From positions 1 through 64,000 of IMG/VR virus record IMGVR_UViG_3300036893_000044: 64,000 nucleotides of DNA; one strand, given 5' to 3'. Both the position numbers and the translations under genes were made by a program. The notes beneath the pieces are model-generated. The model worked only from the letters and a program-made list of their open reading frames with translations. It made no database searches and was not told the origin of the DNA. This document shows, one piece after another, positions 29,658 to 49,129 of this stretch; position 1 is the stretch's first letter; each line of letters begins with the position of its first letter. The DNA comes from a virus.

Positions 29658-29722
29658 GGGGTGTCGGGTGTCTCACCACCCGGCTCTCACCTCATCGTTC
29701 GGAGAAACGACTATGACACCCC
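29658..29722 (+). promoter_or_regulatory. Structured leader of HNH gene, copy A
   Basis: GGGGTGTC (29658-29665) can pair with GACACCCC (29715-29722), which includes the G of the start codon. CGGGTG/CACCCG (29665-29670 with 29677-29682) forms a second stem. TCGTT/AACGA (29695-29699 with 29706-29710) holds the GGAG ribosome-binding site in its loop. The same three stems are possible, with compensating changes, before the HNH genes at 33259 and 39182. Confidence 0.55.
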
Positions 29723-30396
29723 ACGAAGACATCATACCCTACGGTTACTGCCATTGCGCCTGTGGGCAGAAGACCCTTATTGCGATTCGCGGCTGGAAGG
29801 ACGTGAAAGCCGGAGAGCCGAGGAGGTATATCCACGGCCATTCGCACCGGATAAGGTCGATAATTGAAGATGCAAAACCATTTAAACTTGCAGACGAATA
29901 TTGCCGACTCATTCCTCTTTCTCGAGGTTTATGGTGTATCGTCAGCGCCCATCGCTACGAGTATCTTATGCAATGGAAATGGTACGCATGGTTTTGGGAA
30001 AAGACCGGGAAATTCTACGCCGTGAGGAGTGGCCCGAGGATTAATGGAAGCCCAACTAGGATACTCATGCACCGCGCCATTCTTGGCTTGATAGGTGGGG
30101 ATAGAAGGCGTGGCGATCATATTGTTTCCGAAGACACACTAAATAATGCCGATAAAAACCTGCGCACAGGAACTGCTTCACAGAACAATCAAAACAGCAA
30201 AATAAGATCCGACAACACTACCGGATTCAAGGGCGTGTACTTTTATAAAGACGGTCGCAAAAAGCCGTGGATGGCACACATAACTGTAGATAGAAAGCGG
30301 ATCATTCTCGGTTATTTTGAAACCAAAGAAGAGGCGTACGAGGCTTATTGTGATGCCGCCAAAAAATACTTTGGCGAGTTTGCTAGGCTCAAGTAA
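29713..30396 (+). CDS. HNH homing endonuclease with AP2 domain (copy A)
   Basis: 227 aa. N-terminal zinc hairpin (C-x-C-x-C-G), a central HNH core (ILMHRAILGL, RGDHI, LNNADKNLR) and a C-terminal AP2-type DNA-binding domain (GFKGVYFYKDGRKKPWMAHI then YFETKEEAYEAY). Free-standing homing endonucleases of this type cut and spread into related phages. It lies between two virion genes without disrupting either. Start at 29713 with GGAG upstream. Confidence 0.85.
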   Translation: MTPHEDIIPYGYCHCACGQKTLIAIRGWKDVKAGEPRRYIHGHSHRIRSIIEDAKPFKLADEYCRLIPLSRGLWCIVSAHRYEYLMQWKWYAWFWEKTGKFYAVRSGPRINGSPTRILMHRAILGLIGGDRRRGDHIVSEDTLNNADKNLRTGTASQNNQNSKIRSDNTTGFKGVYFYKDGRKKPWMAHITVDRKRIILGYFETKEEAYEAYCDAAKKYFGEFARLK

Positions 30397-31476: not shown

Positions 31477-32574
31477 ATTTCAATCCCGGGGCTCGGATAC
31501 AGGACGGCTGGCGATTTGCTAATGGAAGTCGCATTCCACTTGGCACAACCAGCCGTCTACGACACCCTCGTCAACCCCATCACCGCTGGCGCAGGCGTCA
31601 CCGCCACAATTCAGTCCACCACCTATGTCTACCCCGGCGCTCAACTCGTCATCGAGAAGCCGGGGGTTTCCTCGCAGGAAGTCGTAACGATTCTGACGGT
31701 CCCCTCGGCCACCACCTTCACCGCCAATTTTGCCAACAATCATTTGGCAGTGGTCCCCGCCTGGGGGCCGACATTCCCCACCCAGCAAGGCACGGACCCG
31801 ATCTTCACCCAGTCCGAGATGCTGCAGTACCTGTCGCGCGCGCAAAACGAGTTTTTGACGGCCGTACCCTGCTTCTACCAGCGGTTCTTCCAGAACGTGA
31901 GCATGGGGCAGATTTATCAGGCAACGCCTCCAACAGCCATCCTCATCGATCGCATTGCGGCCTCCGCCATCGACATCGGCATCACGTCCATGGTGCGCAG
32001 CGGCAATATCGTCACGCTTACCGCGGTATCGCCCACAAACCTCGTCCAATACAACACGTTGTCAGTGGTCGGCGCGACCGATTCATCCTTCAATGGCGTG
32101 TTTGCCGTGATCAGCGCGCCGTCCGCGAACGTCATCACCTACCGGCAGATTGCGGCGGATGGATCGACAACCGGCGGCAATATTCAGTCTATGTTAAGAC
32201 TGTACGAGGTCACGCAGGAGGAGCTCGTCCAGCAGAATCGGGCATGGCAGTCGAGCTATGTTGGACCCTTGCAAAGTTGGTTTGAGGATCGGGCTGGGCT
32301 TTATCAATGGGGAGTTGGCGGGCTACCGAGTTCGACGTTCCCGGTGGAGTTGCTAGTAGCTTGTCGAGATAGCGATAGCCTCACGCTTCTAGATAGCTTC
32401 CTCGTCCCAGACGTGGTGGTCCATGCTCTGAAGTATAAGGTTCTTCAATGGTGCTGGGACAAGGACGGCATAGCCCAACAGCCACAGATGGCGCAGTTTT
32501 GTGGGAAGAGATACGATCAAATTGTCATGGCTGCTCAGAGATACATCCAAGCGATGAAGATGAATGTTCGATAG
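31477..32574 (+). CDS. Adaptor-like structural protein, probable ATT start
   Basis: 365 aa if started at ATT 31477. The frame opens after a stop at 31459-31461; the only starts are ATT 31477 (six bases after GGGGG), TTG 31516 and ATG 31522, and the latter two have no ribosome-binding site. The extra residues ISIPGLGYRTAGDLL look like a conserved adaptor N-terminus. Two beta modules follow (SQEVVTILTVPSATTFTANF; SGNIVTLTAV ... SFNGVFAVISAPSAN), then a helical C-terminus like that of the gene at 30406. Confidence 0.6.
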   Translation: MSIPGLGYRTAGDLLMEVAFHLAQPAVYDTLVNPITAGAGVTATIQSTTYVYPGAQLVIEKPGVSSQEVVTILTVPSATTFTANFANNHLAVVPAWGPTFPTQQGTDPIFTQSEMLQYLSRAQNEFLTAVPCFYQRFFQNVSMGQIYQATPPTAILIDRIAASAIDIGITSMVRSGNIVTLTAVSPTNLVQYNTLSVVGATDSSFNGVFAVISAPSANVITYRQIAADGSTTGGNIQSMLRLYEVTQEELVQQNRAWQSSYVGPLQSWFEDRAGLYQWGVGGLPSSTFPVELLVACRDSDSLTLLDSFLVPDVVVHALKYKVLQWCWDKDGIAQQPQMAQFCGKRYDQIVMAAQRYIQAMKMNVR

Positions 32575-33259
32575 GCACGAAGCTACCATAGAGTTCAATT
32601 TCTTTCGCTTTACGCACAGCCACGGCTTTATCGAAGTCTTTGTAATTACCCAAGTGATAGCGGGTTCCGCCTTTGGCTATTACGACATGCCACTTCTCTG
32701 ACTCTTTCATCCAAACCACGCCGGGGTAGCCGCTCGTATTGTTCGACTGCGTGTTGCGATTGAAGGTATTTTCTGAGCGAGTAGACAGTCTCAGATTAGC
32801 AATTCTGTTGTCGAGGCCGTTGCGGTTTTTATGATCGACAAACATCCCCGGAGGAGGGTGGAGAATAAGGTTATGCAGACGGAGGGGAATCCTCTGACCG
32901 CCCACAATGTCAGTTCTGGTCGCGTAAAAAGTCTTATTTTTAGGGGAGTAATGAGCGCACCAAAACGCAGCATTTATACGGTTATATTCACTTGTATCGA
33001 CTAGAGAGAACAGTCCTTGCGTGAGAGCAATTAAGCGTACCGACAGATCCACTGGATGTTCGGTTGTGGATCGTTTTTTGACCGCTCCGTGGCCCATACT
33101 GAAGGCCTTTGGTATGCCTCTTTTCCAGCCAAAATAAGTGTTGGTTTTGAGGGCGACAGTAGTGGTACGACTGCACCCGCAGTGGCATGTTCCAAGAGGA
33201 ATTTGGCAGGCAGGATCGCCGCAAATGCACAGTGCTACACTCAATTCGTGGGGTGTCAT
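32525..33259 (-). CDS. HNH homing endonuclease with AP2 domain (copy B)
   Basis: 244 aa on the strand opposite its neighbours; its 3' end overlaps the adaptor gene by 50 bases. Zinc pairs CICGDPAC and CHCGC, an HNH core (LHNLILHPPPGMFVDHKNRN then LDNRIANLRL) and an AP2-like end (GYPGVVWMKESEKWHVVIAK). Related to copies at 29713 and 39182 in plan and leader, but diverged in sequence. Start 33259 chosen for GGAGG and the shared leader. Confidence 0.85.
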   Translation of the reverse strand: MTPHELSVALCICGDPACQIPLGTCHCGCSRTTTVALKTNTYFGWKRGIPKAFSMGHGAVKKRSTTEHPVDLSVRLIALTQGLFSLVDTSEYNRINAAFWCAHYSPKNKTFYATRTDIVGGQRIPLRLHNLILHPPPGMFVDHKNRNGLDNRIANLRLSTRSENTFNRNTQSNNTSGYPGVVWMKESEKWHVVIAKGGTRYHLGNYKDFDKAVAVRKAKEIELYGSFVPIEHSSSSLGCISEQP

Positions 33260-33313
33260 AGTCGGATTCGCCTCCGATGAAGGTTTGCACCGGGGTTCCC
33301 GCCCCGACACCCC
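33250..33313 (-). promoter_or_regulatory. Structured leader of HNH gene, copy B
   Basis: On the minus strand GGGGTGTC (plus 33306-33313) can pair with GACACCCC at the start codon (plus 33250-33257). CGGGG/CCCCG (plus 33291-33295 and 33302-33306) is the second stem. TCGG/CCGA (plus 33262-33265 and 33274-33277) brackets AGGCGAAT. In copy A the last stem is TCGTT/AACGA, so the pairs changed together. Confidence 0.55.
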
Positions 33314-33357
33314 TTTATTGTAAACCATATAGACGACTCGTGGCATATACTATTCGC

Positions 33358-34131: not shown

Positions 34132-37100
34132 ATGTCCGTCGATACTTCCTATAAACCCGTAGAGTACATTTATATTGATCACGGCCTGATCTCCCGTGAT
34201 GTCGAAGATCAGTGCCCGCCCGGAACTTACTTGCAAGCAATGAACACGCTTGCCAGAAGCGAAAACGCAATGTCCTCGCGCTACGGCACGCAGATCATCA
34301 ACCGCGATGCGCAAGGCAGCGGAACCAGCAATCATTACTTTCCGGCTGCGGTAACATCCCTCTCCCGCCTCAATTATCAATCGAATGCTTGGCGTTATGC
34401 TGGCCTCGGCAATGGCTCGCTCCAGCGCCGCGCAGGCAACACCCAAGGCGCATACACGCAACTGACTCTACCGACAACCTGGACCGGAACCCAAATCGTT
34501 CTCTCCGGACAGCCTTTCGACTCGCTCATAACGAATTGCTTCGAGACTTCTCAGGCGTATCTTTTCATCGCAGATGCCGCGGCGAGCATAAAAGATGCCG
34601 GCACAAGCAATCCGCAACTCTGGGGCATCGACCCATCGCCCTATACGGTCAATGCGCTGCCATACGCTCCACTGCTCATCATGATCGACAGTTTCGCTAC
34701 GGCGAACACTTACACGACGGCGAATGTAACTGGATGGGCCTTTGGCGCTATCGAGACGCTGGACGCAAACTCTGGTGCGCTGATAACAGACTTTAGTCAG
34801 TTTTACGGCGTAGGACCATCCGGCGGCGGGACCACGAATTACAACTTCTCGCCGACGACAGGCACGGTGACCGCAACACAATCTGGCACTGGCAACAACA
34901 CGCAGACCTCATCAGCGCAGACGGAACCTACTTCGATTGTCCCAAGCGCAGGCGAAGCGGTCTCGATGACGGTAGTGTGGAACGCTTCGATATCGATAAG
35001 TGGCGGGTCCGGCTATGGCGGGTGGGTGATTCAATACAGTCCCGATGGAGGCACTACCTGGCTTCAGATAACATCCGGAACCTCTGGGTCCAATGTCACT
35101 ACGCCGACAATCACGTCTAACATCTCAGTCACCGTTCCAAACATCAACCTGCTTCAGGTGCGGGCGCAAGCCTCTTCAGCCGTACCCAGTGGTGGCGCAA
35201 CAGTTGTCACCACTGCCAACATCACCAACGCTTACGTGACCGTCAACAATCCCGGCGCATTTGGACCCGTGACGAATGGGATGCTGTCGCTGCTCAACAC
35301 CAACACTTCGGTTAATGTCCCGATTGCATCGGTGGCCTCGCAGACTCTCGTCGCTGGCCTCTACACGCAACTTCTGATCACGACTTCGACGGCGCATGGC
35401 TTGTCAGCCGGCGCGCTCATTGCGGTCTACGCGTCATCTTCCGATCTTGTGGACGGATTCTATAAAGTGATTGCGGCACCGACCACGACGACTCTTACCG
35501 TGGCTTTTACCTCGGCCACGCTGATTGGCGCGACTGGCGGCTATGTGACGGGTGGAGCGGCTGCTCCCTACGCATGCGTTCTGACGGACGAGTACAGCGC
35601 CCCGTATCCATCGCAGATGAGTGCATGGGGATTCTACGAGTGGGTGCCGCCCACGACAACCGCATTTCCAATCTCAGCCTGGGCCGGGAATGTTGCGGCG
35701 AGTACCAGCGGGACGGTGAGCGCATCGCCCGCCCTCGACCTTAACCAAAACAATCAGGTGACGGACGGCGACTTGATTGTTATCACCCTGTTGACCTCAA
35801 ATCCGGCGAACATATCGCAGATTCAACTTCAGTTCTGGGTGGGTAATAGCAATACCGGCAATCCAAGCAATTATTATTCCGCGTTCATCTCCCCAGCCTA
35901 TTATCAGGGAGCTTTGAGTGGCAGTACGCTGGCGTACCAGGCAACGCAGAGTCAGATTCTAGCTGACACCCTCAACCTCATTACCGGGCAGCCGCCGGGG
36001 ACGACATCGGCTCAACTGCAACCGTCTAATATCTCGACGGGGGCAAGCGCGTGGCAGGCATGCTACATCCCGCGCGGGAACTTCCTTCCTGTGGGTCAAG
36101 CGGGACAAGCGGGCCTCGACTGGGCAAACGTTACCGGTTGGACGCTGACCGTCACGACGAATGCGAATGTCGGCGGCGTGTCGTTCTCCGTCAACGGCCT
36201 CTACCTGCAATGGGGGTACGGACCGAGCTCTTTCGCTGGCGTAGGCTACGACTGGCGGCAAACCTACTACAACGCCAACACTGGCACTGAATCAAATCCA
36301 ACGCCCGCTCAGGAGTTCAACGAAGATTACGGGTATCTGGCCTCAACATCTGCGCCGATCTTCCTGCGGCAAGCTGCGCAGTGCGTGGGCTACTATTCGC
36401 CGGACCCCCAGGTGACACACGTTCGCTTCTATCGCAGAGGTGGAACTCTCAGTGCGAACTGGGTGCAGGTCGGGCAGATTCCGAATATTACCGGCACCGG
36501 CCAGGTAGTGTTCAAGGACGTGATTGCGGATGCGTACATAGAGCAGGCGCAGATTCTGGTTTTGGACAATGATCCGCCCGTCACTTCGTCGCTCATCAAT
36601 CCGATTCAGACGACGCTATCTGCGGCAACTTCGCCTCCCGGGTCTTCGATCTATTCGACCTTCGCTCCGCAGACCGTGACCGTGGCGCAATCCGGCGCAG
36701 TCTTCGTCCCCAATCAACTTGTGGTGGTCGGCAACCCGTCAAACCTCGAGATCGTTTCGGTGATTGCAGGTGGAACAGGAACATTCTCGGCCGTCATTCG
36801 CCTGCAACACAACGTCGGTGAGCCAGTCAACGTCTATGCCGTGCCGCGGCAGCCGTGTAACCTCTGCGCGTTTGCTTATAACCAGGCATGGCTGGCCGGC
36901 GACCCGAACAATCCGCACTACCTCTACTATTCGAAGAAAGGCCTGCCGGAGAACTTCGGGCCTCAGAATTACATCCCGGTATCGACTCCCGATGATCCGA
37001 TCAATGCTGTCATCAATTGGCGCGGGACTTTGATCGTCGGCACTTTGAAGTCGTGGTGGATCATTGTCGGTGGCGCATCGCCATACGCGCAGCCGACAGG

Positions 37101-38241
37101 CTCTGTGCACGGCATCGTCGCACAGCAAGGATGGATTGAGGTGGAAGGTGCGATCTGGTACGCGGCTGCGGACGGTTTGCGCGAGTTCTCAGGCGCGGAT
37201 GGCGCATACAAGACGCTTCCCGTCGAGTGGATCTTCCGTGGCAATCCGGAATGTCTGCCGCCGCAAGCAGACCCGACGCAGTTTTCGCAGACGATCATGG
37301 CGTACTACAACAACGTGGTCTTCTCAAGCTATGTGAGCCTCAATGCGGGCCAGCGGTACAGGCTAAATTACGACACTCAGTATCAGCGGTACCGGAACGA
37401 CGACGTTCCCGCCACCGCAATGCTTTGGGAGAAAGACATCAACACCTTGCTCGTCGGCAAGCAAATCGGCGCAGGCCAGTACGCTGTGGTTCAGGATCAG
37501 GTAGGCGATTATGATGACGGCGGCTGGGTGTCCGGCGCTTTAGTCCAGACGCCGATAAATCTGACGATTCAGCATCCGTATCGCGATCTTGGAAAGCCGC
37601 ACGACAAAAAGCAATTCAATATGCTGGAGACGGATTGCAACACGCAAAACCAAATCCTAAATACGACGCTCTTATTTGAAGACGGATTCATATCTGTTCC
37701 GCTGGCAACTATCAACACAGGTACAAGTCGGCGCAAGGCTGAGTCGATTGTCACCGGTGCAAGTGATCCCGAAGGCGGAGGGCAAGAGGCATATCGTGTT
37801 TCAATCCTGCATACAATGGCCGTGACCGTGGCGCCGACACTCTTCCAGGAGGAGTTAGGCGTAGCTTTGCTGCCGGGAGAGCAGGTGAGTTTCGACACCT
37901 ACTGGCAAAAGTGCGGAACCGATCAATCGAAATTTTTCAAACAGGTTTACCTCGATTATACTTCGCCGGTTGCGATCACTTGTTCTGTTTATGCAGATGG
38001 AAGCGTAACGCCGTATTTCACATTTACGCTCCCGGCGCTGGCAAACCGCGCCATTATCCGTGTTCGCATGGGTAATGTTAATTCCGGTACAACCGCTTTC
38101 ACGATGCGGACCTGGCGACTGATTATACTCACGACAAGCACAGCCGACCCGTTGCAAGGATTCAAACTTTGGCAGAAACCAAGAGTCGAATGGAAACCTA
38201 TAGGAAACAATAGTTACCAGATCAAAGAGTTGGAGGTGTAG
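34132..38241 (+). CDS. Large tail nozzle/stabilisation-like protein
   Basis: 1369 aa, the largest protein here. The N-terminal half is Ser/Thr/Gly/Asn-rich beta sheet with inserted display modules (LITTSTAHGLSAGALIAVYA). The C-terminal half has propeller-like repeats (NPHYLYYSKKGLPENFG, DPINAVINWRGTLIVGTLKS, GWIEVEGAIWYAAADGLREF) as in P22 gp10-like or T7 gp12-like nozzle proteins. It would close the tail tube and carry receptor-binding parts. The family call is from pattern only. Confidence 0.65.
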   Translation: MSVDTSYKPVEYIYIDHGLISRDVEDQCPPGTYLQAMNTLARSENAMSSRYGTQIINRDAQGSGTSNHYFPAAVTSLSRLNYQSNAWRYAGLGNGSLQRRAGNTQGAYTQLTLPTTWTGTQIVLSGQPFDSLITNCFETSQAYLFIADAAASIKDAGTSNPQLWGIDPSPYTVNALPYAPLLIMIDSFATANTYTTANVTGWAFGAIETLDANSGALITDFSQFYGVGPSGGGTTNYNFSPTTGTVTATQSGTGNNTQTSSAQTEPTSIVPSAGEAVSMTVVWNASISISGGSGYGGWVIQYSPDGGTTWLQITSGTSGSNVTTPTITSNISVTVPNINLLQVRAQASSAVPSGGATVVTTANITNAYVTVNNPGAFGPVTNGMLSLLNTNTSVNVPIASVASQTLVAGLYTQLLITTSTAHGLSAGALIAVYASSSDLVDGFYKVIAAPTTTTLTVAFTSATLIGATGGYVTGGAAAPYACVLTDEYSAPYPSQMSAWGFYEWVPPTTTAFPISAWAGNVAASTSGTVSASPALDLNQNNQVTDGDLIVITLLTSNPANISQIQLQFWVGNSNTGNPSNYYSAFISPAYYQGALSGSTLAYQATQSQILADTLNLITGQPPGTTSAQLQPSNISTGASAWQACYIPRGNFLPVGQAGQAGLDWANVTGWTLTVTTNANVGGVSFSVNGLYLQWGYGPSSFAGVGYDWRQTYYNANTGTESNPTPAQEFNEDYGYLASTSAPIFLRQAAQCVGYYSPDPQVTHVRFYRRGGTLSANWVQVGQIPNITGTGQVVFKDVIADAYIEQAQILVLDNDPPVTSSLINPIQTTLSAATSPPGSSIYSTFAPQTVTVAQSGAVFVPNQLVVVGNPSNLEIVSVIAGGTGTFSAVIRLQHNVGEPVNVYAVPRQPCNLCAFAYNQAWLAGDPNNPHYLYYSKKGLPENFGPQNYIPVSTPDDPINAVINWRGTLIVGTLKSWWIIVGGASPYAQPTGSVHGIVAQQGWIEVEGAIWYAAADGLREFSGADGAYKTLPVEWIFRGNPECLPPQADPTQFSQTIMAYYNNVVFSSYVSLNAGQRYRLNYDTQYQRYRNDDVPATAMLWEKDINTLLVGKQIGAGQYAVVQDQVGDYDDGGWVSGALVQTPINLTIQHPYRDLGKPHDKKQFNMLETDCNTQNQILNTTLLFEDGFISVPLATINTGTSRRKAESIVTGASDPEGGGQEAYRVSILHTMAVTVAPTLFQEELGVALLPGEQVSFDTYWQKCGTDQSKFFKQVYLDYTSPVAITCSVYADGSVTPYFTFTLPALANRAIIRVRMGNVNSGTTAFTMRTWRLIILTTSTADPLQGFKLWQKPRVEWKPIGNNSYQIKELEV

Positions 38242-38462: not shown

Positions 38463-39182
38463 CTATACAACGCAAGCGAATTCGCCGAAGTATTTGCGAG
38501 CCGCAGCACAATATGCAGCGTAGGCTAATTCCGCCGTGGCGAACAATCCGAGGTACAGATATTTACCATCCACCCTAATTCTCGCAGTCCATTTTCTTGA
38601 TCCCTTAGACCATGAAACGCCCTTATATCCACTGGTATTATTCTTCTGCTTACGGCGATTCTGTTGCTGCTGGGTGCGATTAGCAAGACGCAAATTACTG
38701 TCACGATTATCCAGTGTTCTCCATGGTTTCTTGTGGTCCCCTTTACGTGGATCGCCAGCTTTTAATCCAAGGATTTGGCGATGCATGGAAATTGTTCCGC
38801 GCATCCCATCCTCTCTTGGATTCAGATTACGTACTGCATAAAACCCCTTTACGCTCTCACACCAAACAGCGCACCACTTCCACTGCATTAAGTAGGTATA
38901 GCGATGAGCACTGACAATAGCCCACTGGCCATTCATTAAAGGGATGAATCGCGCTCCTCTGATGAGCGTCGGACGCTCGCTTTCGGATGGCCTGATGCCC
39001 GATTTGTGGCCACATAGAAACTTATATGGCTCACCTGCCCAAAACCCATTTGTTCTATCTGTGCAACGTGAAATGTTTGTCTTTTTCCCGCACCGGCAAT
39101 GGCAGTAGCCATACGGAATATCGCAGGCGGGATCGCCACAGATGCAACCGTTTAGTGTTACAGTGATTTTGCGAGGGGTCAT
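38463..39182 (-). CDS. HNH homing endonuclease with AP2 domain (copy C)
   Basis: 239 aa from ATG 39182. It has the zinc pairs CICGDPAC and CHCRCG, an HNH core (ISMHRQILGLKAGDPRKGDH then LDNRDSNLRL) and a C-terminal AP2 domain (GYKGVSWSKGSRKWTARIRV then ATAELAYAAY) that ends KYFGEFA like copy A. Occupies the gap between the nozzle operon and the next promoter. Confidence 0.85.
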   Translation of the reverse strand: MTPRKITVTLNGCICGDPACDIPYGYCHCRCGKKTNISRCTDRTNGFWAGEPYKFLCGHKSGIRPSESERPTLIRGARFIPLMNGQWAIVSAHRYTYLMQWKWCAVWCESVKGFYAVRNLNPREDGMRGTISMHRQILGLKAGDPRKGDHKKPWRTLDNRDSNLRLANRTQQQQNRRKQKNNTSGYKGVSWSKGSRKWTARIRVDGKYLYLGLFATAELAYAAYCAAARKYFGEFACVV

Positions 39183-39237
39183 GGTCGTTCCTCCAGAACG
39201 ATTAGGCTTGCCAGGCGCTTCCAACGCCCGACCCCTC
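39173..39237 (-). promoter_or_regulatory. Structured leader of HNH gene, copy C
   Basis: Minus-strand GAGGGGTC (plus 39230-39237) can pair with GACCCCTC at the start codon (plus 39173-39180); relative to copies A and B both sides changed together. GGGCG/CGCCT (plus 39213-39217 and 39225-39229) and TCGTT/AACGA (plus 39185-39189 and 39197-39201, with GGAG in the loop) complete the set. Confidence 0.55.
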
Positions 39238-42925: not shown

Positions 42926-43616
42926 ATGGGCAAGTCGTCGGGGTTGAGTCCTCAAGTCGAATCGTCAATCCAAGCCAACGATACGGCGCTTACTCAAATT
43001 GCGCAGCAAAGCGCAAATCAAAGCTCTCAGCTTTTTCAGGAGTCGAATCCGGGGTTCCAAACTGCCGAGTCACAGTATCAAACTTTGGCAAGCGGAAACC
43101 CGTATGCCATAGCTAAGGCTGTGGCACCTCAAGTACAGCAAATCGCTCAATCTACTGCTGGCGCAAAAGCGAACATCATGAATAACGCACCTTCAGGTGG
43201 TGAGAAGAATCTCGCTCTGGAGCAGGCGGATGTTTCGCAGGGTGCAGAAGTGGGGAAGGTGTCGTCTGGCGCGGTCTCGGGTGCGTACAACGCGCTCGCG
43301 TCTCTTGCCGGGCAAGGAACCGGCGAAAGCATAGGTGCTGCCGGTACCGGCATTTCCGGCTTCAACTCCGCCAATCAAGGCCTCGGTCAACTCGGCAACC
43401 TCCAAATCCAGCAGAAAGGCGCGCAACTCGGTGCCCTGACCTCCCTCGGCGGCGATGCAGCTACCTTGGGAGCAGGGTTTCTTTGACCCGTCTAAAGCTC
43501 AATCTGGCGGAGTAGACTCGGCTTCGTGGGCCAGCCTCATGCAGAACGGCGCGGTCCAGCCCGCGCAAATCGATTCAAGCAGTTTCTACACCCCAGACGC
43601 TTCATTGAGTTTGTAA
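42926..43616 (+). CDS. Virion-region protein with a release-factor-2-like +1 frameshift
   Basis: The zero frame gives 186 aa (42926-43486), Ala/Gln/Gly-rich and helical (QVQQIAQSTAGAKANIM, LQIQQKGAQLGALTSL), like ejection or tail-tip proteins. It ends CTT-TGA-C at 43481-43487 with AGGG three bases before the CTT. Reading +1 continues for 43 residues (DPSKAQSGGVDSASW ... SFYTPDASLSL) to TAA 43614-43616, giving 229 aa of consistent composition. Shifted and unshifted forms may both be made. A simple indel is the alternative. Confidence 0.65.
43474..43487 (+). other. Putative programmed +1 frameshift site
   Basis: AGGG (43474-43477), TTT spacer (43478-43480), CTT (43481-43483), TGA (43484-43486), C (43487). 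In bacterial prfB the order is AGGGGG, three bases, CTT, TGA, C: the Shine-Dalgarno-like element pushes the ribosome +1 on CTT while TGA-C is read slowly. Order and three-base spacing are the same here. Confidence 0.65.
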
Positions 43617-43649: not shown

Positions 43650-44021
43650 ATGGCAATGGATAGAAGAGAATTTTGCGGTGCTGTATTGGTAACAGCAACA
43701 ATGCAGGCGATTGCGTCTAACGGATTAGCGGAGCAACGCAGAATCGTAGGCAGATATATTCTGCAAACTGTCAATTTTCAATGCGTGTGCTTTGGGCGCA
43801 ACGATGGGTATCGAGCAGAATATCCTGGATGTAAAAATTACGATCATGAAAATTATTCACTGTACGAGAGGGCGTTTCTTGAGTCGGAATTACCGAGAGG
43901 ACAACAGGCGAAGCATTGGAGTTTTGAAGATTTTGCGAAAACAGCTTTCGAAGAACAACAGTTCTACCGGGATCACTGCCCCGACTATCCCCATGAAGTG
44001 CATAGCCTAGAGGCGAGATAA
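43650..44021 (+). CDS. Hypothetical protein with Tat-like signal
   Basis: 123 aa, AGGAGGAG just before the ATG. The start MAMDRREFCGAVLVTATMQA has R-R-x-F and a short hydrophobic stretch, like the signal of the gene at 28505. The rest is polar with three cysteines and an acidic helical C-terminus. Export is plausible but not proven. Confidence 0.55.
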   Translation: MAMDRREFCGAVLVTATMQAIASNGLAEQRRIVGRYILQTVNFQCVCFGRNDGYRAEYPGCKNYDHENYSLYERAFLESELPRGQQAKHWSFEDFAKTAFEEQQFYRDHCPDYPHEVHSLEAR

Positions 44022-44038: not shown

Positions 44039-46117
44039 ATGTCCGCAGCCCAGCAATACGATCCCACGAGTCCGACGCCGTACCAGGCACCCGTGCTGCC
44101 GGATCCTACTCCTGCGCAGCCGTCTCCCTTGCCAACTCAAGGGCCGGAAATCAACGGCGCGGTCAAGAAGTCGGGAGCCATCGCCACAGTTGCAGACGGC
44201 ATTCTCCGCGGCTTCATGCAGGGCCGGGCTTACCATCAAGCCTCGCAGGTGATGAAGCTCAAGAAGAAGACGGATGACCTGCAGAACAGCTACAACCAGG
44301 ATGCGGTGAGGCTCTACCAGTTGCATGCGGCCGGCGTCCCCGAAGACAGCCAAGAATACAAGTCGGCGAAGTCCTCAGTGGATGGTTCATGGGGCGCGCT
44401 GATGGATTTCTATAAGGGGCACATCACACCGGACGACGGCAAGAAGAAGTCGAAGGCGAAGAAAGTTGAAGGTGGAATTGTCGGCGCTCTAACCGGAGGC
44501 GACCCGATGGCGCAGTCTGCAGCGTGGTTCCAGGTCGCGCAAAAGATGGGTCCGCCTGTCTACGGCCAGATTGCCATGCTGAATACGCCGGAGGCGAAGG
44601 CCAAGAGAGAAGCAGGCCAGATTAATGCGCAGACAGGTGTTGCCGCGGCGAAGGCAGATGCAACGGGGGTTCAGGCGCAAGATGTCAAGAACGAGAACGA
44701 TTTGACGGTTGAGGAGGCTGTCAGGGAGCGCGACAAGCTGCTGCTAAAAAGGCAGAACGAACCGGCATCAGCGCAAGTCGAGGAAAAGCCAGAGGATTCG
44801 TTCAAGCGTAATAAGCAGTGGGCGAAGCCGGGAGCAGCGCCGTTCATTACCAAATTGTCGCCAGATCAGGAGAAAGAGTTTCAGGATTGGGCAGCGAAGA
44901 ATCCTGACATGGTCAAGGGTGAACTCGACACCAAAACGCCTGATTATGACGTTCGCGGTCGGTGGCTGGCAGAAAAAAATGGCGATCCCGATGCGAAACT
45001 GACCCGCAGTGCGTTCGACGGTAAACTCCATGCTTCCGACAAGTGGAAGACTCCGTTCAATCGGACATTCAGCGCCGAATCGATCTATGCTGCGCCTGGC
45101 GCTCCAAAGTGGGACGGAAATGTCCTGAAAGATAAAGACGGCAATGTGATTGCCGACGAGACGCCTGGCAAGCGCACCCAGGGCGAGCCGGATTGGGATG
45201 CCAGCGACTATAGGGAACATGGTTTGCCGGTGCCGGCTGATGTGCAGCGGCTCGAAACTTTGAATAAGGTATTGGCTGCCCACGGCAAAGCCGGCGATGA
45301 AGTGAAGATCGCCCGCGACAGCATTGCTCGGCGGATTCAGGAAGACCCCAACTATGTGCCAACGCCGGCGGAGATGGCTGTCTTGGGACGCAATGTACCG
45401 GCGGCGAAGACCGCCAAGGCGACCTGGAGAGGCAATTCCCTTGTGGATGTGGTCGATTCCACAGGCAAGGCGTGGACGCCGGAGCAATTGGAAGATGGCG
45501 AGGGCAGTGAAGAGGCTCAGACGCTCTACAAGTCGGCGCTGAAGGTGCAGGATGATGAGCGCAAGACGGCAAGGGATAAGTCGCAACAGTGGTACTCTCA
45601 CGCTAACTATTCAGACACCCTCCAAACTCGCCGGGCTATCCGCGCCCTCGGGCTGAAAGCCAGCGCCGCCGACATCAGGGAGTGGTCGAAGCGCGAAGAC
45701 GCGGCTAATTCTGCCGAGGAAATCTATCAGGAAGCGGCGGCCGTAAAAGTCCCGACGACGACCAGCGACCAGAAGTTGCTGATTCAGTGGGTTCGTTCCA
45801 ACAACCCAGCATCGTCGCGTTTGCCGGATTCCGAAATCAAGCGCGGTTTGGCGGCAGGCGATTACACGACGCGAGCGAAGAACGCATGGGATCTGGCGGT
45901 CAACGGAACATTGACGCCAGAGATTCACAAGGATTTCCTTGGCGATATCCGCAACGCGGCGCAGTCTAATCGGGAAGAGGCCGACAAACTCAAAGAGGAC
46001 TACGGGTTGGATGACGATACGCTCAAGGCGATCGCGCAATCGGCGAATAGTGGTGCTGGTAAGCCGGGTGGAAAGCCGACCGGCGGCAGTAAGGCTGTCC
46101 CTAAAGGGTGGGAGTAG
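44039..46117 (+). CDS. Internal virion (ejection) protein
   Basis: 692 aa, Pro-rich N-terminus, then long Lys/Ala/Glu-rich helices (QVMKLKKKTDDLQNSYNQDA), a beta-containing middle and an Ala/Gly-rich end. Together with the next gene it has the size and position of podovirus ejection proteins, which leave the capsid first and form a conduit across the envelope. No enzymatic motif seen. Its stop and the next ATG are adjacent. Confidence 0.55.
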   Translation: MSAAQQYDPTSPTPYQAPVLPDPTPAQPSPLPTQGPEINGAVKKSGAIATVADGILRGFMQGRAYHQASQVMKLKKKTDDLQNSYNQDAVRLYQLHAAGVPEDSQEYKSAKSSVDGSWGALMDFYKGHITPDDGKKKSKAKKVEGGIVGALTGGDPMAQSAAWFQVAQKMGPPVYGQIAMLNTPEAKAKREAGQINAQTGVAAAKADATGVQAQDVKNENDLTVEEAVRERDKLLLKRQNEPASAQVEEKPEDSFKRNKQWAKPGAAPFITKLSPDQEKEFQDWAAKNPDMVKGELDTKTPDYDVRGRWLAEKNGDPDAKLTRSAFDGKLHASDKWKTPFNRTFSAESIYAAPGAPKWDGNVLKDKDGNVIADETPGKRTQGEPDWDASDYREHGLPVPADVQRLETLNKVLAAHGKAGDEVKIARDSIARRIQEDPNYVPTPAEMAVLGRNVPAAKTAKATWRGNSLVDVVDSTGKAWTPEQLEDGEGSEEAQTLYKSALKVQDDERKTARDKSQQWYSHANYSDTLQTRRAIRALGLKASAADIREWSKREDAANSAEEIYQEAAAVKVPTTTSDQKLLIQWVRSNNPASSRLPDSEIKRGLAAGDYTTRAKNAWDLAVNGTLTPEIHKDFLGDIRNAAQSNREEADKLKEDYGLDDDTLKAIAQSANSGAGKPGGKPTGGSKAVPKGWE

Positions 46118-49100
46118 ATGGCGGTTGCCGAAGCCCAAACCGATGACCGCTGGAATCCAGTAGCGGATGTGCGCAAGAAGTACCCCGGCCTGAAGGATTG
46201 GTCGGATGACCGCATCCTCAAGAACATGGAAGACCCGACGAAGTTCAAGTCGGCATTTCCTGAATACTCACACCTTTCCGATGATGCGATTAAGCGTAAT
46301 GTGGGGAAACTGCGCAAAAAGGAAGAGCCAGTGGTTGCGCCCGCCACGTCTGCGACTCCACATGGATTATCAGAAAAGGAACTGACAACTAATACGCCGG
46401 ACGAGCAAGGCCACTATCGCGGCCTCTATGAGATGACGGCCCCCTCCGGGGAAAAGAAAAGTATTCCCTATAACAATGTCAATACCGCTATCAAGCAGGG
46501 GTACAAACTTACGGAAACTAGTCAAAAGACATATCTACACGACTACTCTTCTGATCCGAATGTTATTAAAGATGCGACAAAAACAGCAGAGAAGAATGCT
46601 GACGAAGTGAAGCTCGTGGTTGGCGCCACGAAAGAACTTGGAGATCTAAGCGGAGGCGCGCTGCATCTTGCCGTTCATTTTGGCGAAGGCGAGCAATCTC
46701 CGCACGACATTTTTGCCTACAAGAAATTACACCCGCATGCGACAGACGAGGAAGCCGAGGATGCAGTCCAAAAAGGTTACCGTGCTCTTAAGTCTGAATT
46801 AGAAACAAAGACAGAGGAGTGGGCGGATTCGACGGCAAAAAAACTCCAGAGCGGCGGGAGTCCAGAGGGTATTTGGGAGAACATCGGCTCACTTGGAACC
46901 CAGGTGGGCGAGATCGCCATTCCAGAAGGCTGGTTAGGTAAATTGGCGGAGGGATCCAAGGTAGCGGAAACAGTTCGGGCATCAACCAAGATGCGTGAGA
47001 TCAGCGAATTTCTGGGTAAATATCCGCGCATCAAGGCGCTGGTTTCGTTCGGTGCAAAGACCGCTGGGGCTGGGGCGAAAGGTGCGGCGGAACAAGGAGC
47101 GCAGACCTACGTTGAGACGGGCGGTGACGCGAAGCAGGCGGAAGAGGCCGCAATGATCGGCGGTGGAGTTGGCGCGGTGGCCCATGTTGGCACTGAAGCA
47201 ATTAAAACTGGCGCTGGCATTGCGAAGAAAGCGGTACGCGGCATCGTTGGCACAGGTGAGAGCCAATCAGCGGAAATGGTGCGTGATACGGCAAAGAGCA
47301 ACAAGGCTGAGATTGCGGATGCCGAAAAGAAGACGGCAGACAACCAGGCTAAGTATGAACTAGATGTGCAGGCAACCAAAGATGAGAATGCGAGGTTAGA
47401 GCAGGAGGCGCGTGATAAAACCTCCAAACGTAATGAAAAGGCGGAAGGCCGGCACAAGAGGATATTGACCAAGCAGGAAGAGGAGCACCAAGCCAAAGTA
47501 GACGAGATCGCGGCGCAAAACACCAAGGCTGAGCAAGAGGCCAGCCAGAAGACGGCCGAAGCGCAGCAGACGGCTAAAGATGAGTACGAAAGAACTGTAA
47601 CTGAAAGTAAGGATTTGGAATCGAAGCGCGGGCGATTGGCTCGTCAAGAGATTACGCTTCGCGATCGACTTAGCCGTAGACTTCAGGACATTAAGACGAA
47701 AGCCAAGGCGTACACCGATGGCCAATGGGATGCTATCCGCAAGGCGGTAGGTAAGGCTACGACTCCGATTGAGCCGCTGATTGAGACTGTCGATAGAGCA
47801 AAGAGTAAGTTTGAGGGGTCCAAAGAGAAAGTCCGGGAGTTCGAGGATATTTTGGCGCGCGCCCAGCACGACGGCGCGACAGATGATTTACTTGAGGCGA
47901 CGGCGCGGTCTAATTTCGGCAAGCCGTATATCAAGCTCGAAACAATACAGAAAGCCACAGTGGATCGCGCCGTAAAAGAAGCGGAGGAAAACTACGCCCG
48001 CGCCCGCGGCGAGACGATAGAGAACGCGACCATCGACTATACGCATCTTCGGGGTTATTCGAGTGAACTAGGTAAGTTGCTGCGAACGGACGCGCTCGGA
48101 AGGAATGTCAATAACCTCGATGCTGATGTGATTCACGCCCTTTCCATCGTAAAGAATAAGGTGGATGGAATGGTAGACGAGATGGCGAACGATGCTGGAA
48201 TGGGTGCAAAACTCAAGAAGGCAAAGGCTGATTATCGCACCTATAAGCAGGTATTTTATGAGCCGACCGGGATGAGTAAGTCGGGATCTCCGGTAGCTCA
48301 GGGATTGGGTGCGGTGGAAGCCTTTAATTCCACGCAGCCGTTTCTCAGTGATCAGCCGGAAGTTGCGAGCCGTATGCGTCAAATGCTGGTTGGTCGTGAG
48401 TCTGGACCGTATTACGACCCGAATGCGGGTAAACTCTTAGATCAATTGCGCGCCGTTGCCGATGAACGTAAGTCACTTCCGAAGCCGGGGAAGACTCCGG
48501 AGTACGCCGAACCGAAGCCGGTTGAGGCGAAGACCAAAGAGCCGCCAAAGCCGCCAAAGCCGCCGGAGTATATTCCACCAGAACCCGTGGAACCAAAGCT
48601 CAAGCCGGAACCGAAGCCGCCGGAACCTACCAAGCCGGAACTCAAAAAACTCTCACCGGAGAAATTACGCGAACAGCGCGAGGAGAACATCTACCAGTTC
48701 GCCAAGAAACTGCAACACTTTGGGCCATATATGGCGACTGGTGCTGTAGGTGGATTTATCGGCGGTCTGTCCTCTCTTGCGACTGGAAACAAGGATATCC
48801 CCAAAGCTATCGAGACTGGTGCTGTCGCTGGATCTGCGCTACTGTTAGCCCCATACGCCATTCGGACGCTGCTTGAAAAGCCTTGGGTAATCGAAAAATT
48901 GACGAAGCCAACATTGCAAGACTTGAAGCAGTTAGAGAAACTGCCGCGCGATCAGCGTGAGGGAGTTGAGGTTGCACTTGCGCAACTGTCAAAAGAGGCG
49001 GAGAAGCGCGGCATCATCAAAAAACCTAGTCGGTGGATGGTTGTGCTTGCCAGCGAAGGAGCAAAGAAACTCGCGCAAGGCGAAGAGAGCAAGCCAACGC

Positions 49101-49129
49101 CTGGCGAAGACGAGGAGCAAAAGAAATGA
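46118..49129 (+). CDS. Large coiled-coil internal virion protein
   Basis: 1003 aa. N-terminal domain, then hydrophobic and Ala-rich segments at about 240-380 (possible membrane-active part), a long coiled coil at about 385-560 rich in Lys/Glu/Gln, and a Pro-rich linker with repeated PKPPE-type units (about 790-850). Near the end is a hydrophobic hairpin (ATGAVGGFIGGLSSLA and VAGSALLLAPYAI). This plan fits an ejection protein that inserts into the host membrane. Confidence 0.6.
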   Translation: MAVAEAQTDDRWNPVADVRKKYPGLKDWSDDRILKNMEDPTKFKSAFPEYSHLSDDAIKRNVGKLRKKEEPVVAPATSATPHGLSEKELTTNTPDEQGHYRGLYEMTAPSGEKKSIPYNNVNTAIKQGYKLTETSQKTYLHDYSSDPNVIKDATKTAEKNADEVKLVVGATKELGDLSGGALHLAVHFGEGEQSPHDIFAYKKLHPHATDEEAEDAVQKGYRALKSELETKTEEWADSTAKKLQSGGSPEGIWENIGSLGTQVGEIAIPEGWLGKLAEGSKVAETVRASTKMREISEFLGKYPRIKALVSFGAKTAGAGAKGAAEQGAQTYVETGGDAKQAEEAAMIGGGVGAVAHVGTEAIKTGAGIAKKAVRGIVGTGESQSAEMVRDTAKSNKAEIADAEKKTADNQAKYELDVQATKDENARLEQEARDKTSKRNEKAEGRHKRILTKQEEEHQAKVDEIAAQNTKAEQEASQKTAEAQQTAKDEYERTVTESKDLESKRGRLARQEITLRDRLSRRLQDIKTKAKAYTDGQWDAIRKAVGKATTPIEPLIETVDRAKSKFEGSKEKVREFEDILARAQHDGATDDLLEATARSNFGKPYIKLETIQKATVDRAVKEAEENYARARGETIENATIDYTHLRGYSSELGKLLRTDALGRNVNNLDADVIHALSIVKNKVDGMVDEMANDAGMGAKLKKAKADYRTYKQVFYEPTGMSKSGSPVAQGLGAVEAFNSTQPFLSDQPEVASRMRQMLVGRESGPYYDPNAGKLLDQLRAVADERKSLPKPGKTPEYAEPKPVEAKTKEPPKPPKPPEYIPPEPVEPKLKPEPKPPEPTKPELKKLSPEKLREQREENIYQFAKKLQHFGPYMATGAVGGFIGGLSSLATGNKDIPKAIETGAVAGSALLLAPYAIRTLLEKPWVIEKLTKPTLQDLKQLEKLPRDQREGVEVALAQLSKEAEKRGIIKKPSRWMVVLASEGAKKLAQGEESKPTPGEDEEQKK

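What the first reader, a model, noticed from the sequence alone, without database searches (positions are those of the whole stretch)
42926..43616. Release-factor-2-like programmed +1 frameshift in a virion gene
The zero frame ends AGGG-TTT-CTT-TGA-C (43474-43487). In bacterial prfB an AGGGGG element three bases before CTT-TGA-C drives +1 frameshifting; order, spacing and slippery codon are the same here. In the +1 frame 43 further codons follow with the same Ser/Ala/Gln character, ending 34 bases before the next gene. Use of the RF2-type site in a phage structural gene would make product length depend on RF2 level. I know of no described phage case.
Basis: partly seen in the sequence, partly recalled or inferred. 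Interest (0 to 1): 0.85.

Follow-up and report, generated by a model that had tools for sequence, protein, structure and literature searches.

The report
RF2-style frameshift in a phage gene
A phage gene lying between tail-type and long structural-type genes ends in the same ribosome-slipping signal that bacteria use to control release factor 2, and related phages suggest it is kept by selection, so the phage probably makes a short and a 43-residue-longer form of one protein from a single gene.

Summary
ORF 42926-43486 (186 codons) ends GCA-GGG-TTT-CTT-TGA-C, and the +1 frame stays open 43 codons to 43616. It is not an indel: a related phage contig (L023, 60% protein identity) has GCA-GGG-AAA-CTT-TGA-C at the homologous place with a 55-codon +1 extension. 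The spacer codon and the codon before GCA are replaced at every base, while AGGG and CTTTGAC are identical, although only 20% of codons are identical gene-wide. Two other lineages reach a +1 extension through other shifty stops: L002 CCC-TAG-C and L021/L022 CTT-TAG-C. L004 encodes an extension homologous to L023's, but behind an ATGA overlap. Homologues without an extension have the next gene 3-60 nt away. Best reading: programmed +1 frameshifting at a shifty stop, giving 186- and 229-residue forms. Phage virion genes with CCC-stop +1 shifts are known (SPP1, Listeria PSA, lactococcal 936); an RF2-type CUU-UGA-C site with upstream Shine-Dalgarno element in a phage gene I found nowhere. New variant of a known kind. 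Frameshifting itself, virion location and dependence on RF2 level are untested; the SD element (AGGG) is weaker than in prfB.

The parts
42926..43486 (+). Zero-frame ORF, 186 aa, Ala/Gln/Ser/Gly-rich, mostly helical protein; short form
   Evidence: 24 distinct homologues aligned with it; AlphaFold model helical, mean pLDDT 63
43474..43477 (+). AGGG, internal Shine-Dalgarno-like element, 3 nt before the slippery codon
   Evidence: identical in L023; exact-spacing frequency 6/8231 codons and predicted anti-SD pairing -5.7 kcal/mol
43478..43480 (+). Spacer codon TTT (AAA in L023)
43481..43487 (+). CTT-TGA-C shifty stop: CTT slippery codon, TGA stop, +4 C
   Evidence: identical in L023; CCC-TAG-C in L002, CTT-TAG-C in L021/L022; +4 C enrichment
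43485..43616 (+). +1-frame extension, 43 codons (DPSKAQSGG...DASLSL) plus TAA; with the zero frame gives a 229-aa long form
   Evidence: coding-like codon usage
43650..44021 (+). 123-aa ORF between the extension and the next conserved gene, no match in relatives
44039..46117 (+). Conserved downstream gene (692 aa); in relatives it follows the gene or its extension within about 60 nt
46118..49129 (+). 1003-aa gene following the 692-aa gene; last of the syntenic series
34132..38241 (+). 1369-aa gene upstream, conserved together with the finding's gene in nearly all related loci; large structural (tail-type) protein by position only
   Evidence: matches in 28 loci; no family hit

Best explanation
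The gene is decoded with programmed +1 ribosomal frameshifting at a shifty stop built like the one in bacterial prfB. A ribosome with peptidyl-tRNA-Leu on CTT pauses at the poorly terminating TGA-C; upstream AGGG pairs with the anti-SD of 16S rRNA and strains the P-site pairing; the tRNA re-pairs one base on (CUU to UUU) and translation continues at GAC. Ribosomes that stop give the 186-residue form; a fraction makes a 229-residue form with a flexible Ser/Ala/Gln-type tail. Gene order (1369-aa gene, this ~190-aa helical Ala/Gln-rich gene, then 692- and 1003-aa genes) suggests an internal virion / ejection protein like T7 gp14, so both forms would go into the particle at a set ratio, as in SPP1 tails. 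Shown here: site, open frame, conservation, coding signature. Inferred: the frameshift itself, its efficiency, the protein's role and any RF2 dependence.
For: Same site at the homologous place in L023, with 55-codon +1 extension. Between window and L023 only 37 of 184 aligned codons are identical, yet GCA GGG and CTT TGA C are, while the interleaved codons GGA/TTT and TTT/AAA differ at every base. Other lineages place other +1-prone codons before the stop: L002 CCC-TAG-C, L021/L022 CTT-TAG-C; only 11 of 227 long ORFs in these loci end in CTT, CCC or TTT before the stop, and that count includes this gene's own L003, L021 and L022 copies. +4 base is C in 5 of 5 extension-bearing genes, 2 of 23 others, Fisher p=2e-4. 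Extensions fill the 149-185 nt gap to the next gene in L002, L004, L021 and L023; without an extension the next gene starts 3-60 nt away where measured. Coding-like codon usage in the extensions. L023 and L004 extensions are homologous, BLASTP 1e-7. The genome holding L023 uses the RF2 site in its own prfB (GCGGGAG-TAT-CTT-TGA-C). No downstream RNA structure beyond shuffles, as expected for prfB-like sites.
Against: The SD element is only AGGG; its pairing energy is matched by 11% of 12-mers sampled in the window's genes, and GGGAG just upstream could compete for the anti-SD. Only two sequences share the exact RF2-type site. The window's own extension is not significantly similar in sequence to the others. 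Its closest relative by core sequence, L003, has no extension, and the extension is scattered on the tree. The +1 frame has an ATG at 43455, so separate initiation is possible in the window. L004 needs a different route (ATGA overlap). No protein data.
Confidence: 0.84

Rival explanations
1. The extension is a separate small overlapping ORF, started at ATG 43455 (53 aa) or by re-initiation after the stop, and the shifty stop is incidental.
For: ATG in the +1 frame at 43455 and at the same place in L023; in L004 the extension starts with an ATG overlapping the stop (ATGA).
Against: No strong SD before ATG 43455. L002 has no ATG, GTG or TTG in the extension frame between the upstream stop and its 23rd codon. 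The ATG in window and L023 lies within conserved zero-frame Asp-Ala codons. It does not explain conservation of AGGG, CTT and +4 C, nor shifty codons in all four +1 cases.
Confidence: 0.1
2. Sequencing error, recent indel or decaying gene: the long protein was once in one frame.
For: Metagenomic contig, no reads inspected; a one-base change would join the frames.
Against: An independent assembly of a diverged phage has the same arrangement, two more lineages have +1 arrangements with other codons, and no homologue encodes the long form in a single frame.
Confidence: 0.03
3. The extension is non-coding spacer and the site a coincidence.
For: Extensions are short, low-complexity and dissimilar between most phages.
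Against: Coding-like codon usage only in the extension frame (also L023, L002 and L004); L023/L004 extensions homologous; site conserved amid replaced codons.
Confidence: 0.03

Closest known systems
Bacterial prfB (release factor 2) autoregulatory +1 frameshift
   Same: CTT-TGA-C with an SD-like element 3 nt upstream, UGA stop, +4 C, no 3' structure needed; the genome holding L023 carries it too
   Different: Here at the 3' end of a phage gene, adding a 43-residue tail instead of yielding the functional protein; SD is AGGG rather than AGGGGG; no autoregulatory loop, since the product is not a release factor
SPP1 gp17.1/gp17.1* (PMC6316719), lactococcal 936-phage MTP-TpeX (PMC4759559), Listeria PSA/A118/A500 tsh (PMC5009743)
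   Same: +1 shifty stop at the end of a phage structural gene giving short and C-terminally extended forms; L002 uses CCC-TAG as in the 936 phages
   Different: Those use CCC-stop codons in siphovirus tail-tube genes; the window uses the CUU-UGA-C site with an SD element, in an unrelated gene
T7 gp10A/10B and lambda gpG/gpGT -1 frameshifts
   Same: Two virion or assembly products at a fixed ratio from one gene
   Different: -1 slippage within a coding run, no stop-codon competition
T7-like internal virion protein gp14
   Same: Size, helical Ala/Gln-rich make-up, position before two long genes; weak Foldseek matches to 'internal virion protein' models
   Different: No significant sequence or fold match (best Foldseek E 0.07); no frameshift known to me in gp14

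Membership tests
RF2 (prfB)-type +1 frameshift site | Slippery CUU (rarely UUU) directly before the stop | tested here: met
   CTT 43481-43483; CTT in L023
RF2 (prfB)-type +1 frameshift site | UGA stop followed by C | tested here: met
   TGA-C 43484-43487; TGA-C in L023
RF2 (prfB)-type +1 frameshift site | SD-like element 3 nt upstream of the slippery codon, pairing with the anti-SD | tested here: inconclusive
   AGGG at the right place in both phages, but predicted pairing -5.7/-5.1 kcal/mol against -6.9 (prfB of the L023 genome) and -10.7 (E. coli)
RF2 (prfB)-type +1 frameshift site | Long +1 frame encoding the functional product, a release factor that feeds back | tested here: not met
   The +1 part is a 43-residue tail on a phage protein; it works like the site but is not a prfB gene
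RF2 (prfB)-type +1 frameshift site | Frameshift efficiency rises when RF2 is scarce | not testable with these tools
   needs an in vivo or in vitro assay
Phage +1 shifty-stop extension of a virion protein (SPP1/PSA/936 type) | Stop preceded by a +1-prone codon, downstream +1 ORF that extends the C-terminus | tested here: met
Phage +1 shifty-stop extension of a virion protein (SPP1/PSA/936 type) | Both forms present in the particle | not testable with these tools
   no virion proteome
T7 gp14-like internal virion protein | Sequence or fold similarity to gp14 | tested here: inconclusive
   No useful PHROG (one E=0.009 hit in one of 25 members, unknown function), Pfam or PDB sequence hit; Foldseek viral hits to internal virion proteins only at E 0.2-1.5 with poor TM
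T7 gp14-like internal virion protein | Gene order: tail tube B, gp14, gp15, gp16 | tested here: inconclusive
   1369-aa, 186-aa, 692-aa, 1003-aa order in the window and in part in relatives, but the neighbours have no named family

The most novel reading that the evidence does not exclude
A group of phages has taken up the RF2-sensing shifty stop so that the ratio of short to extended structural protein follows the host's RF2 activity or translational state, making particle composition depend on host termination capacity.
Probability: 0.15. Interest if true: 0.8.

Novelty: new variant of a known kind. Interest (0 to 1): 0.6.

Why it matters
The CUU-UGA-C site with an upstream SD has been tied to one gene: the PRFect paper notes that all +1 entries with CUU before a stop in the RECODE data are prfB (PMC10885494). 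A conserved use in a phage gene would show the element is portable, and gives a natural second context to separate set-ratio production from RF2 sensing. It also shows one phage gene family reaching a C-terminal extension through at least three shifty stops (CTT-TGA, CCC-TAG, CTT-TAG) plus an ATGA overlap, like the Ig-like extensions where frame and route seem not to matter. Practically, gene callers would cut such proteins short, by about 40-55 residues here.

Tried and rejected
Sequencing error or pseudogene: rejected by L023, L002, L021/L022. Stop readthrough: rejected, a second in-frame stop lies two codons on in the window, L023 and L002. Downstream RNA stimulator: none (z -0.27, 0.75, 0.70). 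Homologues in cultured phages: none by tblastn, nor for the neighbouring 1369- and 1003-aa genes. A DNA scan for the window/L023 site (TTGNNNGCAGGGNNNCTTTGAC) gave 6 loci, none a homologue and all consistent with chance matches. A scan for AGGGGGTNTCTTTGAC gave 29 loci, several of them a Gly-Phe-Phe-Asp motif that reads as methylase-type sequence in the +1 frame; two possible further cases (L061, L070) had no informative relatives. The downstream-gene profile gave only contigs already known. Searches of 396 and 399 genomes of the phylum and class of the L023 genome gave no further informative homologue. Fold comparison gave no significant match.

Full report
What is there. Window 42926-43486 is an ORF of 186 codons that ends GCA GGG TTT CTT TGA C; the +1 frame is open from GAC 43485 for 43 codons to TAA at 43616. 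The elements of the E. coli prfB site (SD-like G-run, one spacer codon, CUU, UGA followed by C; described in PMC13245932) are present in order, but the G-run is AGGG instead of AGGGGG. The window lies in a 70-kb virus record with terminase, portal and major head protein. No cultured phage matches the protein or the two neighbouring genes I tested, and the protein has no Pfam or PHROG hit.

Chance. AGGG at this spacing precedes 6 of 8231 codons in the window's genes; CTT is 1.0% of codons. The extension has codon usage of the phage's genes only in the +1 frame: +5.1 against -7.5 and -9.2, and none of 390 out-of-frame chunks scores as high, though it sits at the 10th percentile of true coding chunks.

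Relatives. Profile scans of IMG/VR and of GTDB genomes gave the 24 relatives used in the alignment. Their 3' ends fall into two classes. Most have no extension: the next conserved gene (homologue of window 44039-46117) starts 3-60 nt after the stop in those I measured. Five lineages have a 149-555 nt gap with an open frame other than the zero frame: window (CTT-TGA-C, +1, 43 codons), L023 (CTT-TGA-C, +1, 55 codons), L002 (CCC-TAG-C, +1, 53 codons), L021/L022 (CTT-TAG-C, +1, 49 codons) and L004 (ATA-TGA-C, with an ATG overlapping the stop, other frame, 52 codons). In the window the gap is longer because a 123-aa ORF follows the extension. In all four +1 cases the codon before the stop is one of the most shift-prone before a stop (CUU, CCC; PMC5009743, PMC10885494). 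Only 11 of 227 ORFs of 200 codons or more in these loci end in CTT, CCC or TTT, a count that includes this gene's own L003, L021 and L022 copies. The base after the stop is C in 5 of 5 extension genes, 2 of 23 others (Fisher p 2e-4; the rows are related, so this is a guide, not a strict test).

Selection on the site. L023 lies in a contig binned in a Verrucomicrobia MAG; that contig shares tail-region and replication genes with the window, so it is a related phage or prophage. Aligning the genes, 37 of 184 codons are identical (20%). At the junction the pairs are GGA/TTT, GCA/GCA, GGG/GGG, TTT/AAA, CTT/CTT, TGA/TGA, then C/C. The codons that carry the signal are identical, the two interleaved ones differ at every base. 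The codons just upstream (GAT GCA GCy ACC TTG) are also unusually conserved, which I cannot explain fully. The genome that holds L023 has a prfB with the same kind of site (GCGGGAG-TAT-CTT-TGA-C), so if it is the host the machinery is compatible; the window's host is unknown.

The extensions. L023 and L004 extensions are homologous (18-residue match, 78% identity, BLASTP 1e-7) although one is reached by +1 and the other starts at an ATGA overlap. This resembles the indifference to the route that Atkins et al. (PMC5009743) describe for Ig-like extensions. Codon usage supports coding in L023, L002 and L004; in L021 it is ambiguous, another frame scoring higher. The window's extension is not significantly similar to any other, so its own conservation is not shown. 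On the tree of the core protein, extension-bearing genes do not cluster, and the window's nearest relative L003 lacks the extension and site; the C-terminal part appears to be exchanged or gained and lost repeatedly (inference).

Rivals. Separate initiation at ATG 43455 is possible in the window and L023, but L002 has no ATG, GTG or TTG in the extension frame until its 23rd codon, and it would not explain the site. Indel or error is made very unlikely by independent contigs. Readthrough is excluded by a second in-frame stop two codons on in window, L023 and L002. No downstream structure was found.

Function. AlphaFold gives an all-helical protein with a confident core (about residues 60-115) and a low-confidence extension. 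Foldseek gives no significant match, with several weak ones to podovirus 'internal virion protein' models (none in PDB). By gene order I think a gp14-like internal virion or ejection protein most likely (perhaps 55%), from the pattern in T7-like phages, which is general knowledge and not tested here.

Known or new. +1 shifty stops extending phage virion proteins are known: SPP1 gp17.1* at CCC-UAA with a 3:1 ratio in tails (PMC6316719), lactococcal 936 phages at CCC-UAG (PMC4759559, PMC6105707), Listeria phages at CCC-UGA (PMC5009743). The CUU-stop form is, in the RECODE data, confined to prfB (PMC10885494), and literature searches in the open-access library found no phage example; subscription papers were not searchable. 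So this is a new variant of a known kind. RF2 sensing by the phage is attractive but unproven; that sister lineages use UAG (an RF1 stop) with CCC or CTT speaks for set-ratio production as the common purpose.

Noticed in passing
L070 (581-596) and L061 (4073-4088): Two other viral contigs have AGGGGG-TCT-CTT-TGA-C at the end of an open zero frame with an open +1 frame behind it: L070 143 codons then 320 codons (an ATG in that frame just upstream is an alternative); L061 a 687-codon amidase-like gene then 35 codons. Candidate further RF2-type phage cases, without comparative support.
   Followed up: partly
L002 6550-6721: CCC-TAG-C with a 53-codon +1 extension in the same gene family: the same shifty stop as in lactococcal 936 phages.
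   Followed up: yes
L004 6550-6710: Extension homologous to that of L023 but starting at an ATG that overlaps the stop (ATATGA): re-initiation or another shift.
   Followed up: partly
window 29668-30396 (+), 32525-33346 (-), 38463-39224 (-): Three ORFs that resemble one another and look like HNH/AP2-type homing endonucleases (by eye), scattered among the structural genes.
   Followed up: no
window 43650-44021: 123-aa ORF without matches, inserted between the extension and the conserved downstream gene; no match in relatives.
   Followed up: partly
window 43454-43468 and the homologous stretch of L023: Synonymous conservation (GAT GCA GCy ACC TTG) just upstream of the frameshift site, more than the gene average; reason unknown.
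   Followed up: partly
L017 6580-6625: Homologue ends GGT-GGA-AAG-TGA-GGTGGTGGTGGC in a Gly repeat with a short open frame behind; may be another junction type.
   Followed up: no
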